A stretch of DNA of 46,591 bases. Origin: an uncultured Clostridia bacterium (lineage in GTDB: Bacteria; Bacillota; Clostridia; Oscillospirales; Acutalibacteraceae). The notes beneath the pieces were generated by a model that saw only the letters and a list, made by a program, of their open reading frames with translations, searched no databases and was not told where the DNA came from. Each line of letters begins with the position of its first letter. Positions within the stretch are counted from its first letter, which is position 1. The stretch is from positions 1 to 46,591 of the forward strand of contig CAMFSU010000009.1 of NCBI GenBank assembly GCA_945983355.1, given 5' to 3'. Positions 24,255 through 32,135 of the stretch are shown here, piece after piece. Both the position numbers and the translations under genes were made by a program.

Positions 24255-24329
24255 GCGGGTGTAGTTCAACGGCTAGAATCCCAGCCTTCCAAGCTGGTTG
24301 TGTGGGTTCGATTCCCATCACCCGCTCCA
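24255..24329 (+). tRNA. tRNA-Gly (anticodon TCC)
   Basis: 75 nt with encoded CCA (24327-24329). Acceptor GCGGGTG pairs with CACCCGC; anticodon stem CCAGC/GCTGG encloses CTTCCAA, giving TCC; T-loop TTCGATT. Followed after two bases by a strong terminator. Confidence 0.97.
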
Positions 24330-24331
24330 CG

Positions 24332-24371
24332 AAAAAAGTCACTTTTGTCTACCGACAAAGGTGACTTTTTT
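24332..24371 (+). terminator. tRNA-Gly terminator, left part of repeated unit
   Basis: 18-bp stem with one wobble (24332-24349 with 24354-24371), TACC loop, T6 end. Identical to the tRNA-Arg terminator at 31549-31588. Confidence 0.92.
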
Positions 24372-24548
24372 CAATGATATCCGTTCCTGGCAGAACGGAT
24401 GATATAGCTGATGCTATGATATCTGCTGTGCAGATGATATATGCCTGCGGCATATGAAGGAACGGATATTATATCATATTTGCAACGCAAATATATCATG
24501 CGGCGCAAGCCGTATATCATATTGCGCAAGCGATATATCATTGAAAAA
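24367..24548 (+). repeat. Hairpin-array element, copy A
   Basis: 182 bp bounded by a perfect 14-nt inverted repeat (TTTTTCAATGATAT at 24367-24380; ATATCATTGAAAAA at 24535-24548). The left half carries ATGATAT at 24374, 24399, 24416 and 24434; the right half carries the inverse ATATCAT at 24471, 24493, 24514 and 24535. Between them lie short palindromes with 3-6-nt loops, for example ATCTGC-TGT-GCAGAT and ATTTGC-AAC-GCAAAT. A longer pairing, ATATCCGTTCC (24377-24387) with GGAACGGATAT (24459-24469), encloses the left half. No coding capacity. About 75-80% similar to copy B by eye. Confidence 0.88.
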
Positions 24549-24569
24549 CATAACAAATTATGATATAAT
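24541..24569 (+). promoter_or_regulatory. Promoter at right end of element A
   Basis: TTGAAA (24541-24546) lies inside the right terminal inverted repeat; 17-bp spacer; TATAAT (24564-24569). It would start transcription about 15 bases before the ribosome site of the four-helix-bundle gene. Confidence 0.8.
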
Positions 24570-24591
24570 TCCAAAGAAAGTAGGTGCTTTT

Positions 24592-24945
24592 ATGTCCGAA
24601 AACAAATTACTTGATTTATCTTTTGAATTTGCAGTTGCTATTGTTAATCTTGTGGATGATGTAACTGCGCCGAAAAGTTCCTATATGACTGATCAACTTG
24701 CAAGATCAGGTACATCAGTAGGTGCCAATATTCACGAAGCGCAGTATGCACAGAGCAAAAAGGACTTTGTCGCCAAGTTAGAAATTGCCTTGAAGGAATC
24801 CAACGAAACAAGCTACTGGTTAAAGCTGATGTATCAAACCAAGAGAATAGATACAGCTACATATCAATATACCGAGAAACTTTGCGGCAATATCCGTAGG
24901 TTGCTGATTGCATCTTGCAAGACTGCAAAGGAGAGTTCGAAATGA
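24592..24945 (+). CDS. Four-helix-bundle protein (23S rRNA intervening-sequence/S23 family)
   Basis: 117 aa. LLDLSFEFAVAIVNL, then QLARSGTSVGANIHEAQYAQSK and KLEIALKESNETSYWLKLM, is the signature of the small four-helix-bundle family first described from ORFs within 23S rRNA intervening sequences; related to the Avd accessory protein of diversity-generating retroelements. No reverse transcriptase or variable-repeat region is present here. Start at ATG 24592, behind GTAGG and the element-borne promoter; the frame runs back into the repeat without support. Stop overlaps the next gene (ATGA). The molecular role is uncertain, probably nucleic-acid binding. Confidence 0.85.
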   Translation: MSENKLLDLSFEFAVAIVNLVDDVTAPKSSYMTDQLARSGTSVGANIHEAQYAQSKKDFVAKLEIALKESNETSYWLKLMYQTKRIDTATYQYTEKLCGNIRRLLIASCKTAKESSK

Positions 24946-25448
24946 AAATAGCGGAAATCTGTACTTTGTTGAAGCGAGAACTCTATGAAAACAACTATCA
25001 ATACGGGTTTTATTTTGGTGGGATAAAGTACATGCCTGATTTTAAGAATGGGTTTGATGAAGAATTTTTCAAGCTATCTAAAACTGTCTATCGTATTCAA
25101 AATCCGCAAGATACGATGAAAGAAAAAATTGGGACCTGCATTGATGCAGTGATAGTAATGAAAATTATTTTAGATGAAATAAATGTCCCAAGTAAAATTT
25201 GGCTACTTTATCATAATCTGAAAAAGACTCCACATACGATTCTTACCTTTGAAGCAGAAGAAAAACTTGTCTATCTTGAACTTACTCCACAATCAAACAA
25301 ACCTTGGTACGGCAAAGAAATTGTTTATAGTAACGAGCAAAGTTTGATTGAACAATTTCAAAAAGAGAATTATGCCATCGTTGAGATAACCGACAAAATA
25401 ATAATTGGCAACTCTCCCGATTCGATATTACAGTACATAGTTCCATAG
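24942..25448 (+). CDS. Transglutaminase-like fold protein, uncharacterised
   Basis: 168 aa, AAAGGAG ribosome site, ATG overlapping the previous stop. The central segment has the order expected of a transglutaminase-like catalytic core: Cys66 in GTCIDAV at the start of a helix, His98 in PHTILTF on a strand, and Glu113 in YLELTP where most members have Asp. The N-terminal 55 residues are polar. This could be a small cysteine protease or amidase-like protein, or an inactive relative. No signal peptide. It forms a two-gene cassette with the four-helix-bundle gene, bounded by the element and a weak terminator. Confidence 0.55.
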   Translation: MKIAEICTLLKRELYENNYQYGFYFGGIKYMPDFKNGFDEEFFKLSKTVYRIQNPQDTMKEKIGTCIDAVIVMKIILDEINVPSKIWLLYHNLKKTPHTILTFEAEEKLVYLELTPQSNKPWYGKEIVYSNEQSLIEQFQKENYAIVEITDKIIIGNSPDSILQYIVP

Positions 25449-25474
25449 AACACAAACCGAGAACACATTACTTT

Positions 25475-25503
25475 GCACCTTTAGGTGCGACTTCTCTTTT
25501 TTT
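25475..25503 (+). terminator. Weak terminator after the cassette
   Basis: GCACCT-TT-AGGTGC (25475-25488), effective 5-bp stem, then GACTTCTC and seven T. Confidence 0.55.
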
Positions 25504-25508
25504 ATATA

Positions 25509-25522
25509 GATGGGAATCGAAC
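25509..25522 (-). repeat. Inverted 14-nt copy of the tRNA-Gly T-arm
   Basis: The minus strand reads GTTCGATTCCCATC, identical to tRNA-Gly positions 24306-24319 (T-stem/loop). No other tRNA parts are adjacent, so it is a fragment rather than a gene. Confidence 0.6.
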
Positions 25523-25576
25523 AAGGAGTATTTTTTAACCGCTAAAATTTTAACGGCTAAATTTCATCACAAACTA

Positions 25577-31469: not shown

Positions 31470-31546
31470 CTGCCCGTGGCGCAACTGGATAACGCAACAG
31501 ATTCCGATTCTGGAGATTGGGGGTTCAAATCCCTTCGGGCAGGCCA
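31470..31546 (+). tRNA. tRNA-Arg (anticodon CCG)
   Basis: 77 nt with CCA encoded (31544-31546). Acceptor CTGCCCG pairs with CGGGCAG, G discriminator; anticodon loop TTCCGAT gives CCG; T-arm GGGGG-TTCAAAT-CCCTT. The anticodon stem has one A-G mismatch at its outer pair. No clear promoter; it may be read from galE or from weak AT-rich sequence upstream. Confidence 0.94.
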
Positions 31547-31548
31547 CG

Positions 31549-31588
31549 AAAAAAGTCACTTTTGTCTACCGACAAAGGTGACTTTTTT
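31549..31588 (+). terminator. tRNA-Arg terminator, left part of repeated unit
   Basis: Same 18-bp stem, TACC loop and T6 as after tRNA-Gly; the identity of the two loci runs 61 nt from the CCA (31544-31604). Confidence 0.92.
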
Positions 31589-31761
31589 CAATGATATCCG
31601 TTCCCTACGGTCACGGATGATATAGCTAACGCTATGATATCTGCTTTGCAGATGATATACGCTTCGCGCATAAAGGAACGGATATTATATCATGCTTGCG
31701 GAGCAAGTATATCATACGGCAAGCCGTATATCATATCGCGCCAGCTATATATCATTGAAAA
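31585..31761 (+). repeat. Hairpin-array element, copy B
   Basis: 177 bp with perfect 13-nt terminal inverted repeats (31585-31597; 31749-31761). Same module order as copy A. Several stems differ, and some of the changes keep pairing: ATTTGC/GCAAAT in A is GCTTGC/GCAAGT in B. The long pairing ATATCCGTTCC (31594-31604) with GGAACGGATAT (31675-31685) is conserved. Non-coding. Confidence 0.88.
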
Positions 31762-31783
31762 GCGCAATAAATTGTGGTATGAT
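31755..31783 (+). promoter_or_regulatory. Promoter at right end of element B
   Basis: TTGAAA (31755-31760) in the right inverted repeat, 17-bp spacer, TATGAT (31778-31783). Same geometry as copy A; the spacer differs from A almost only by transitions. Confidence 0.75.
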
Positions 31784-31808: not shown

Positions 31809-32135
31809 ATGATAGGTCAGATTGTTACTGTAACTGTTGACAGACCACTTGGCAGTTGTCATCCCGATTATCCTAACACTTATTATCCAATAAATTATGG
31901 TTATATTAAAGGCACAATGGCGGCTGATGGGGAGGAGCAGGACGCCTATGTTTTAGGGGTTAGTGAGCCGATTTCAAAATTCAAAGGTAAAGTAATTGCG
32001 GTCATAAAGCGTGAGGATGATATCGAGCAAAAATTGGTGGTAGTACCTGACGGTGTCAGCTTTACAAAAAAGGAAATTGAAAATCTGACATATTTTCAAG
32101 AGAAATATTTCACCTCTAAAATCGTTTTGCTTTAG
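31809..32135 (+). CDS. Short inorganic-pyrophosphatase-like protein
   Basis: 108 aa, AGGAG ribosome site, ATG 31809. TVTVDRPLGSCHPDYPNTYYPINYGYI, DGEEQDAYVLG and KREDDIEQKLVVV align with the core of family I soluble pyrophosphatases, including the YPINYGY strand. The second acidic cluster is D-G-E-E-Q-D rather than D-x-D-P-x-D, and the protein is far shorter than the ~175-aa enzyme. It may therefore be a divergent or non-canonical phosphohydrolase. Transcribed from the promoter at the end of hairpin element B. Confidence 0.75.
   Translation: MIGQIVTVTVDRPLGSCHPDYPNTYYPINYGYIKGTMAADGEEQDAYVLGVSEPISKFKGKVIAVIKREDDIEQKLVVVPDGVSFTKKEIENLTYFQEKYFTSKIVLL

What the first reader, a model, noticed from the sequence alone, without database searches (positions are those of the whole stretch)
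24327..24569. tRNA-linked hairpin-array element that carries a terminator at one end and a promoter at the other (copy A)
Directly behind tRNA-Gly there is an 18-bp terminator, then a 182-bp element with 14-nt perfect terminal inverted repeats, four ATGATAT motifs followed by four inverted ATATCAT motifs, and a short palindrome between each pair of motifs. The right inverted repeat contains TTGAAA, exactly 17 bp from TATAAT, so the element end is the -35 of the next gene. Terminator, symmetric hairpin array and outgoing promoter in one ~240-bp unit look like a mobile or recombining insulator-promoter cassette. I know of no named family with this architecture, but cannot search.
Basis: partly seen in the sequence, partly recalled or inferred. 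Interest (0 to 1): 0.8.

Follow-up and report, generated by a model that had tools for sequence, protein, structure and literature searches.

The report
tRNA-end gene cassettes with hairpin tree
A small mobile DNA cassette of gut bacteria, made of a terminator, a tree of hairpins, a promoter, a gene of a protein family of unknown function and an exchangeable passenger gene, inserts exactly behind the CCA end of many different tRNA genes, and looks unlike the mobile elements it was compared with.

Summary
Copy A heads a 1,143-bp insertion (24330-25472) that starts at the base after the CCA of tRNA-Gly and splits that tRNA's own terminator. In a close relative (G063) the site is empty, while the same head (98.9% over 622 bp) sits behind tRNA-Glu with another passenger gene. 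Unit: terminator hairpin, a "tree" of 4+4 separators with covarying hairpins, promoter, a four-helix-bundle gene (PF05635, the 23S-rRNA intervening-sequence family), and a passenger ORF whose ATG overlaps that gene's TGA. Of 72 related loci with enough upstream sequence (from the 80 closest of 473), 70 carry the tree and 47 have a tRNA ending 30-60 nt before it: 23 anticodons, 11 amino acids. Separator type follows the bundle protein's phylogeny with the fewest changes possible (15; shuffled mean 32.6). Rfam knows part of it as Gut-1 RNA. No transposase lies in the unit; reverse transcriptase and Y1 transposase are not consistently present in carrier genomes. I read it as a new class of mobile gene cassette aimed at tRNA 3' ends. 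The joining enzyme and the bundle protein's role are inferred, not shown.

The parts
24255..24329 (+). tRNA-Gly(TCC), the insertion target; the insertion begins at the base after its CCA
   Evidence: the alignment with the empty site of G063 ends at the last base of this tRNA
24330..24372 (+). h0: terminator hairpin that goes with the unit, loop region TTTTGTCTACC; by its A-run and T-run it may work in both directions (by eye)
   Evidence: identical behind tRNA-Gly in G000 and tRNA-Glu in G063; in the loci held, 31 of 35 tRNAs followed by a TGTCTAC loop also have a tree
24373..24542 (+). tree: four ATGATAT and four ATATCAT separators with hairpins between them
   Evidence: 81 copies aligned, 22 of 50 pairs with changes on both sides
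24372..24465 (+). part matching Rfam Gut-1 RNA (RF01706), below the gathering score
   Evidence: 46.1 bits, E 3.2e-8, gathering 50; the right half matches on the - strand at 32 bits
24541..24569 (+). promoter-like site TTGAAA-N17-TATAAT starting in the last separator
24592..24945 (+). four-helix-bundle protein gene, 117 aa, PF05635 (23S rRNA intervening-sequence protein)
   Evidence: 83.8 bits, cut-off 33.8; PDB 2rld, E 6.6e-26
24942..25448 (+). passenger ORF, 168 aa, ATG overlapping the TGA of the bundle gene; no Pfam match
   Evidence: other ORFs in its place in G063 and G072
25463..25474 (+). possible truncated right-end motif (ACATTACTTT)
   Evidence: short, may be chance
25473..25530 (+). 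remaining 3' part of the tRNA-Gly native terminator, displaced by the insertion
   Evidence: 94% over 52 nt to the empty site of G063
31470..31546 (+). tRNA-Arg(CCG), target of copy B
31547..31589 (+). h0 terminator hairpin of copy B
31590..31756 (+). tree of copy B (no bundle gene follows)
31755..31783 (+). promoter-like site of copy B (TTGAAA / TATGAT)
   Evidence: read by eye
31809..32135 (+). ORF downstream of copy B, 108 aa, shared with G063, where another kind of hairpin array stands upstream

Best explanation
A mobile gene cassette that inserts exactly behind the CCA end of tRNA (and tmRNA) genes of many kinds. Shown: unit anatomy; left end at CCA; empty and differently occupied sites in close relatives; near-identical units at different tRNAs; exchange of passengers behind the same head; co-divergence of bundle protein and separator motif. 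Inferred: the bundle protein binds the separators of its own tree, folded as a single strand or cruciform, and brings the unit to the tRNA 3' end, while an enzyme from outside the unit does the joining (this step about 0.35). The h0 hairpin ends tRNA transcription and the promoter at the tree's end drives bundle gene and passenger, so an insertion need not harm the tRNA. Copies without a bundle gene (B and C61 here) may be moved in trans by the bundle protein of copy A, whose separators they share.
For: Empty site: G000 and G063 align at 87.9% through the last base of tRNA-Gly and again (94% over 52 nt) from 25473, so 1,143 bp stand where G063 has 9 bp (right edge good to a few bases). The head 24327-24948 recurs at 98.9% in G063 behind tRNA-Glu with other flanks, and with nearly the same ends at 84.7% in G072. 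L113 and L118: 99% over 1,354 aligned bases, behind tRNA-His and tRNA-Tyr, upstream 300 nt sharing only a 57-nt match at 79%. L130 and L147: same tRNA-Gly(GCC) site, heads 97%, unlike passengers, chromosome resuming at 81%. Tree in 70 of 72 loci; tRNA end 30-60 nt before it in 47 of 72; 23 anticodons, 11 amino acids. 45 chosen passengers fall into 35 clusters. 16 separator types need 15 changes on a tree of 46 bundle proteins, the least possible; shuffled mean 32.6, 0 of 200 as low.
Against: No joining enzyme was identified. Co-divergence also follows if protein and tree merely travel together; many inner branches of that tree are weak (17 of 42 open) and near-copies help. L185, left out of it, is a counter-example: a broken L068-like bundle gene behind part of an ATGATGT-type tree. 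Some copies are not behind a tRNA-like end: C61 here, L142, L160, L173, and others behind another tree. The 80 loci are the closest of 473. In a per-genome sample of 30 PF05635 genes of the genus, by eye, 11 are behind tRNA ends, 5 have a tree elsewhere, 14 have simple repeats or nothing tree-like upstream. The right-end motif is seen in 19 of 75 loci (opposite strand 6 of 80; some of the 19 look like chance) and 5 of 99 genomes. All 80 named records are metagenome assemblies.
Confidence: 0.8

Rival explanations
1. A structured regulatory or noncoding RNA (Gut-1) that happens to lie behind tRNA genes; the unit as such is not mobile.
For: Rfam has the left half as Gut-1; Weinberg 2010 lists it as a noncoding RNA, 'human gut only' (PMC2864571, passages). 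Hairpins covary strongly. In right-half hairpins G.T outnumbers A.C 81 to 2 on the tRNA-sense strand, 27 to 2 without the three columns beside separators (summed).
Against: The tree lies between a terminator and a promoter, poorly placed to be transcribed. The left-half hairpins in the consensus structure show no strand bias (G.T 4, A.C 5). The same unit occurs at different tRNAs and its site is empty elsewhere.
Confidence: 0.12
2. A REP/RAYT- or IS200/IS605-like unit moved by a Y1 (HUH) transposase acting on single-stranded hairpins.
For: Hairpin end, fixed short target, no target duplication at site A; Y1_Tnp matches in 49 of 70 genomes of the genus, G000 (E 2.2e-39) and weakly G063 (27.5 bits) included.
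Against: No Y1 gene in the unit; 17 of the 57 PF05635-bearing genomes have no Y1 match, among them G002, G043 and G061, which carry A-like trees. These genomes are incomplete (G043 57%), so this is not final. Known ends of that family were not compared.
Confidence: 0.15
3. A retroelement: RNA that starts behind the tRNA's CCA is joined to another tRNA's 3' end and copied back by a reverse transcriptase, with the bundle protein as an Avd-like helper.
For: Many CCA ends, tmRNA included, are targets; PF05635 resembles the DGR accessory protein Avd (PMC10053308, passages); part of the strand bias; G000 has one weak RVT_1 match (40 bits).
Against: RVT_1 is found in only 17 of 70 genomes of the genus and not in G063, which carries the 99% copy; 42 of 57 PF05635-bearing genomes have no match.
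Confidence: 0.1
4. The covariation of hairpin arms is not selection on a folded strand but repair of near-palindromes by template switching during DNA copying (compatible with the mobile-cassette reading).
For: Few wobble intermediates in left hairpins despite many double changes; in L160 one arm of h0 looks like an inverted copy of the end of the gene upstream (by eye).
Against: Separators keep their order and number, and right hairpins do show wobble bias. It explains the arms, not the insertions.
Confidence: 0.25

Closest known systems
Integron gene cassettes (attC/attI, IntI; recalled)
   Same: Short units with one passenger gene, precise insertion at an anchor, passengers of similar broad kinds (GNAT, methyltransferase, DUF), sometimes in rows (two trees about 1.5 kb apart in G072 contig C11).
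   Different: The anchor is the CCA end of many tRNAs; units carry their own terminator and promoter and often a bundle gene; no integrase gene in the unit.
23S rRNA intervening sequences with S23p/IVP ORF
   Same: Same protein family (PF05635); insertion at a stable-RNA gene; inverted repeats. A study of the Coxiella case calls function and origin unclear and cites mobility as one hypothesis (PMC4990558, passages).
   Different: Inserted behind tRNA/tmRNA, not inside 23S rRNA; carries tree, promoter and passenger.
Gut-1 RNA (RF01706)
   Same: Left half of the tree matches the model.
   Different: The full element is about twice as long, symmetric, and part of a mobile cassette; separators vary widely.
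REP/RAYT and IS200/IS605 derivatives (recalled)
   Same: Palindromic arrays, possible mobilisation in trans.
   Different: No Y1 transposase in the unit; the target is a tRNA 3' end.
Diversity-generating retroelements (Avd protein)
   Same: PF05635 resembles Avd (PMC10053308, passages).
   Different: No reverse transcriptase in the unit; template/variable repeats were not looked for.

Membership tests
Gut-1 RNA (RF01706) | score at or above the gathering threshold of 50 bits | tested here: not met
   Copy A 46.1 bits. Two other matches of the same genome pass: C61 51.5 and C3 60.9.
Integron gene cassette | insertion at an attI site beside intI | tested here: not met
   Insertion is at the CCA of tRNA genes.
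Integron gene cassette | IntI-type recombinase in the genome | not tested
   No search for IntI was made.
Integron gene cassette | one passenger ORF, usually promoterless, with a recombination site at its 3' end | tested here: inconclusive
   One passenger follows but behind the unit's own promoter-like site; a right-end motif in 19 of 75 loci.
23S rRNA intervening sequence | encodes a PF05635/S23 protein | tested here: met
   83.8 bits, cut-off 33.8.
23S rRNA intervening sequence | lies inside a 23S rRNA gene | tested here: not met
   Copy A lies behind tRNA-Gly; no rRNA match in the window.
REP/RAYT or IS200/IS605 | Y1 transposase encoded in, or consistently present with, the element | tested here: not met
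   None in the unit; no match in 17 of 57 PF05635-bearing genomes (genomes incomplete).
Diversity-generating retroelement | reverse transcriptase | tested here: not met
   None in the unit; no RVT_1 match in 42 of 57 PF05635-bearing genomes.
Transposon or MITE with target duplication | direct duplication of the target | tested here: not met
   Site A replaced 9 bp and shows no duplication; one site only.
tRNA-integrating genomic island | copy of the tRNA 3' end at the far side | tested here: inconclusive
   Among 43 loci searched (those of 47 with at least 500 nt downstream) one long direct repeat, L178, 45 nt; L124 a 12-nt direct and L104, L107 11-nt inverted matches; nothing in the other 39. 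On the near side, L126, L146, L148, L159 and L169 sit behind a second copy of a tRNA 3' end (by eye).

The most novel reading that the evidence does not exclude
A class of mobile element that recognises the mature 3' end of tRNAs (acceptor plus CCA) rather than one DNA sequence, and so can use nearly every tRNA and tmRNA gene of a genome as a safe landing site; the four-helix-bundle protein is the targeting factor, and the 23S rRNA intervening sequences, unexplained since 1990, are relatives of the same elements that landed in another stable RNA.
Probability: 0.25. Interest if true: 0.95.

Novelty: categorically new. Interest (0 to 1): 0.85.

Why it matters
It gives the PF05635/S23 family, whose function and origin are called unclear in the paper seen here (PMC4990558, passages), a concrete genetic setting with a cognate nucleic-acid motif that can be tested. 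It would be a route of gene capture and exchange in gut Clostridia that uses tRNA genes as docking sites, with passengers such as acetyltransferases, methyltransferases and nucleotidyltransferases. It also recasts a catalogued noncoding RNA as half of a mobile DNA element.

Tried and rejected
Phage origin: one scan of viral contigs with the bundle protein (close relatives only) found none. Reverse transcriptase and Y1 transposase as necessary partners: not consistently present, so neither is adopted. tRNA-type integrase with a far-side att copy: one clear case (L178) among 43. Homologous recombination between tRNA genes as the whole explanation: units at 99% sit behind unlike tRNAs with little or no shared upstream sequence. 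Defence cargo: 18 PADLOC families match among 45 passengers, the strongest mad2 in 4 members (E 4.6e-26) besides methyltransferases and nucleotidyltransferase-like models; these are broad folds that Pfam shows too, so no defence role is claimed. A pure RNA reading of the wobble bias was toned down: left hairpins do not show it, and RNAalifold favours G-U pairs when choosing the structure; two near-invariant G-U columns (55-78, 57-76) are of that kind, which inflates the raw total of 300 to 13. Gut-1 as a census tool: 5 of 398 genomes of the phylum match, G000 among them, 4 over the cut-off; separators vary too much.

Rows dropped or chosen: of 83 trees collected, 81 were aligned (L145, 202 nt, and L168, 158 nt, left out). 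Of the bundle proteins at hand 46 went into the tree, among them 11 of the 80; L185, L012, L062 and others were left out. Separator labels were given by eye before the tree was built. Passengers: 43 from the loci and two from the window, chosen for an open frame of fair length, 10 of the 45 without an ATG overlap or without a bundle gene (L112 GTG, L127 TTG, others near the stop, copy B's ORF); the near-copies L107, L118 and L126 were left out, which raises the apparent diversity.

Absence from print rests on searches of the held open-access library only.

Full report
What is there. The window is contig C9 of a 1.57-Mb genome in 62 contigs, 97.7% complete. Copies A and B are 83% identical and share a 42-nt terminator hairpin without a difference. 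A third copy (C61, 78%) lies at the end of a gene that looks like a mechanosensitive channel (recalled, not searched), apparently inside that gene's own terminator (by eye). Weak matches on C39 and C14 read as trees with GCGATAT/ATATCGC in place of ATGATAT/ATATCAT (by eye).

The unit is larger than the tree. Copy A is followed by a 117-aa protein of PF05635, the 23S rRNA intervening-sequence protein (83.8 bits, cut-off 33.8), which matches the solved structure 2rld at E 6.6e-26. The stretch 24327-24948 recurs at 98.9% in G063 and, with nearly the same ends (24328-24948), at 84.7% in G072, while the flanks differ. The left flank is tRNA-Gly here and tRNA-Glu in G063. The right flank is another ORF each time, its ATG overlapping the TGA of the bundle gene.

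Empty site. In G063 the gene before the tRNA (pdxK-like, name recalled; 96% protein identity) and tRNA-Gly are the same, but the tRNA is followed by an ordinary terminator. The alignment breaks at the last tRNA base and resumes at 25473: 1,143 bp here stand for 9 bp there. Behind the same tRNA-Gly, G068 and G001 hold other trees with other bundle genes, G026 a broken bundle gene behind a copied tRNA end, G064 no insert, G051 another kind of repeat (by eye). tRNA-Arg was found in 9 of 10 genomes tried. It is followed by different trees in G000, G063, G034, G064, G001 and G026 and by a remnant in G051, and in G068 by a tree of the reversed type (my display was out of register there). G042 shows another repeat family. 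G000 and G063 share 96.9% up to that tRNA and 89.4% from 17 bp before the downstream ORF, with unlike arrays between. At tRNA-Glu, G063, G026, G068 and G064 hold four different inserts, G051 a remnant, G001 only a terminator; in G000 the match ends at a contig end.

How general. A scan of genome contigs with the bundle protein gave 473 relatives; the best 80, 75% or more identical, are kept with flanks of up to 3 kb. All 80 are titled as metagenome assemblies, of Clostridia and other Bacillota. Of 72 with at least 330 nt upstream, 70 have at least two ATGATAT and two ATATCAT, 57 have an ARAGORN tRNA within 700 nt upstream of the tree, and 47 have it ending 30-60 nt before the tree; the 47 cover 23 anticodons and 11 amino acids. 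A T-arm-plus-CCA pattern is found in 57 of 72 (no chance control). Among the rest, by eye, some sit behind a tRNA 3' fragment or a tmRNA 3' end (L125, L155, L181); L142, L160 and L173 do not, and some follow another tree. A per-genome sample is less clear-cut: PF05635 occurs in 57 of 70 genomes of the genus. Of the 30 best loci, by eye, 11 lie behind tRNA ends (9 with an ARAGORN call), 5 have a tree elsewhere and 14 have simple repeats or nothing tree-like. Gut-1 matches in a single-contig genome of the phylum but outside the class (G457) lie behind tmRNA, tRNA-Pro and tRNA-SeC (ARAGORN names), and one in G498 behind tRNA-Asp, with other separators. So the arrangement is not limited to one genus.

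Mobility beyond this genome. L113 and L118 share 99% over 1,354 aligned bases, passenger included, behind tRNA-His and tRNA-Tyr; their upstream 300 nt share only a 57-nt match at 79%. L130 and L147 share the site (tRNA-Gly, upstream 88%) and the head (97%) but not the passenger; the chromosome resumes at 81%. Of 48 units compared, these two pairs and A/G063 were the only ones at 93% or more. Thus units move whole, and passengers are exchanged behind a kept head. Chimeric assembly is possible in principle, but the flanks compared are long.

Passengers. In 47 of 80 loci the TGA of the bundle gene overlaps an ATG (6 more TTG, 2 GTG); in 36 of the 47 the ORF is at least 79 aa, in 11 it is short or cut by a contig end (counted by eye). 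45 chosen passengers form 35 clusters. The commonest Pfam matches are GNAT acetyltransferases, methyltransferases, nucleotidyltransferases, histidine phosphatases and DUF4279; the window's own passenger matches none.

Right end. Some passengers are followed by a motif ending CTCTTTCGCA and then by the next terminator hairpin. It is found with up to 2 mismatches in 19 of 75 loci, against 6 of 80 on the opposite strand; a few of the 19 look like chance. A search made without reference to the bundle gene found 6 places in 5 of 99 genomes and none with the reversed control. All six stand, by eye, before a terminator hairpin, three with a whole or shortened tree. G000 has no match. The right end is the least certain boundary.

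Structure. 81 trees fold into a common form in which outer separators pair and hairpins fill most gaps. 98.6% of 4,013 cells pair; 22 of 50 pairs have changes on both sides, against 13.6 in shuffles, 0 of 500 as high; sliding the partners destroys the signal. The tree lies between a terminator and a promoter-like site (52 of 70 loci, 2.45 in base shuffles), which speaks for a role as DNA or as a rare read-through RNA. Wobble counts are mixed: right hairpins favour G.T over A.C on the tRNA-sense strand (81 to 2; 27 to 2 without columns next to separators); the left hairpins of the consensus structure do not (4 to 5), summed.

Protein and tree belong together. On a tree of 46 bundle proteins, 16 separator types need 15 changes, the least possible; shuffled labels need 32.6 on average, 0 of 200 as low. 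Similar separators are neighbours (ATGAAAT with GTGAAAT; ATGATGT with GTGATGT and ATGAAGC). This fits recognition of the separators by the protein, but co-inheritance alone would give it too, 17 of 42 inner branches are weak, and labels were given by eye. L185 is a counter-example, left out as a broken hybrid.

Mechanism. Shown: insertion right after CCA, mobility, modular exchange. Inferred: the bundle protein gathers the folded tree and directs the unit to a tRNA 3' end; the joining enzyme comes from outside. Reverse transcriptase (17 of 70 genomes, a weak match in G000, none in G063) and Y1 transposase (49 of 70, present in G000, weak in G063, none in G001) are not consistently present; from the tables, 42 and 17 of the 57 PF05635-bearing genomes lack a match. 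Other recombinases were not searched for.

Comparison with the known. Rfam Gut-1 is the left half; its paper lists it as a noncoding RNA, human gut only (PMC2864571, passages). The 23S rRNA intervening sequences carry the same protein family; a study of the Coxiella one says that function and origin remain unclear and names, as one theory, a mobile element whose ORF serves mobility (PMC4990558, passages). PF05635 resembles Avd of diversity-generating retroelements (PMC10053308, passages). No paper on a tRNA-end cassette of this kind turned up, all in one open-access library.

Noticed in passing
window 25519-25535; L045, L046, L051, L065, L069, L096: Behind several tRNA terminators stands an inverted copy of the tRNA T-arm, in some followed by an AACAGTCC..GGACTGTT hairpin and by a second copy of the tRNA 3' end: apparently another repeat family at tRNA ends (by eye).
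   Followed up: no
L160 upstream of 1088: The tree follows a gene whose last codons have an inverted copy as the right arm of the h0 hairpin, as if the hairpin had been copied from the target (by eye).
   Followed up: no
L197, L199, L201, L202, L208, L213, L215 upstream of the bundle gene: Other PF05635 genes of the genus follow short repeats of the type AATGCGTAATTCGTAATGCG, without a tRNA nearby; on the protein tree they form their own part.
   Followed up: partly
G000 C39 (L007 2960-3500): A second bundle gene of this genome with its own tree of GCGATAT/ATATCGC separators.
   Followed up: partly
L185 from about 1795: Apparent hybrid insert at tRNA-Glu of G068: part of an ATGATGT tree joined to a broken L068-type bundle gene.
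   Followed up: no
G457 contig C1 around 1,919,772-1,920,705: Several Gut-1-like trees in a row near the tmRNA gene of a single-contig genome.
   Followed up: partly
L178 downstream of the bundle gene: A perfect 45-nt repeat of the tRNA-Tyr 3' end 628 nt behind the bundle gene's stop: a second tRNA or a far-side copy.
   Followed up: no
control: The Gut-1 model also rings below its cut-off in Escherichia coli.
   Followed up: no
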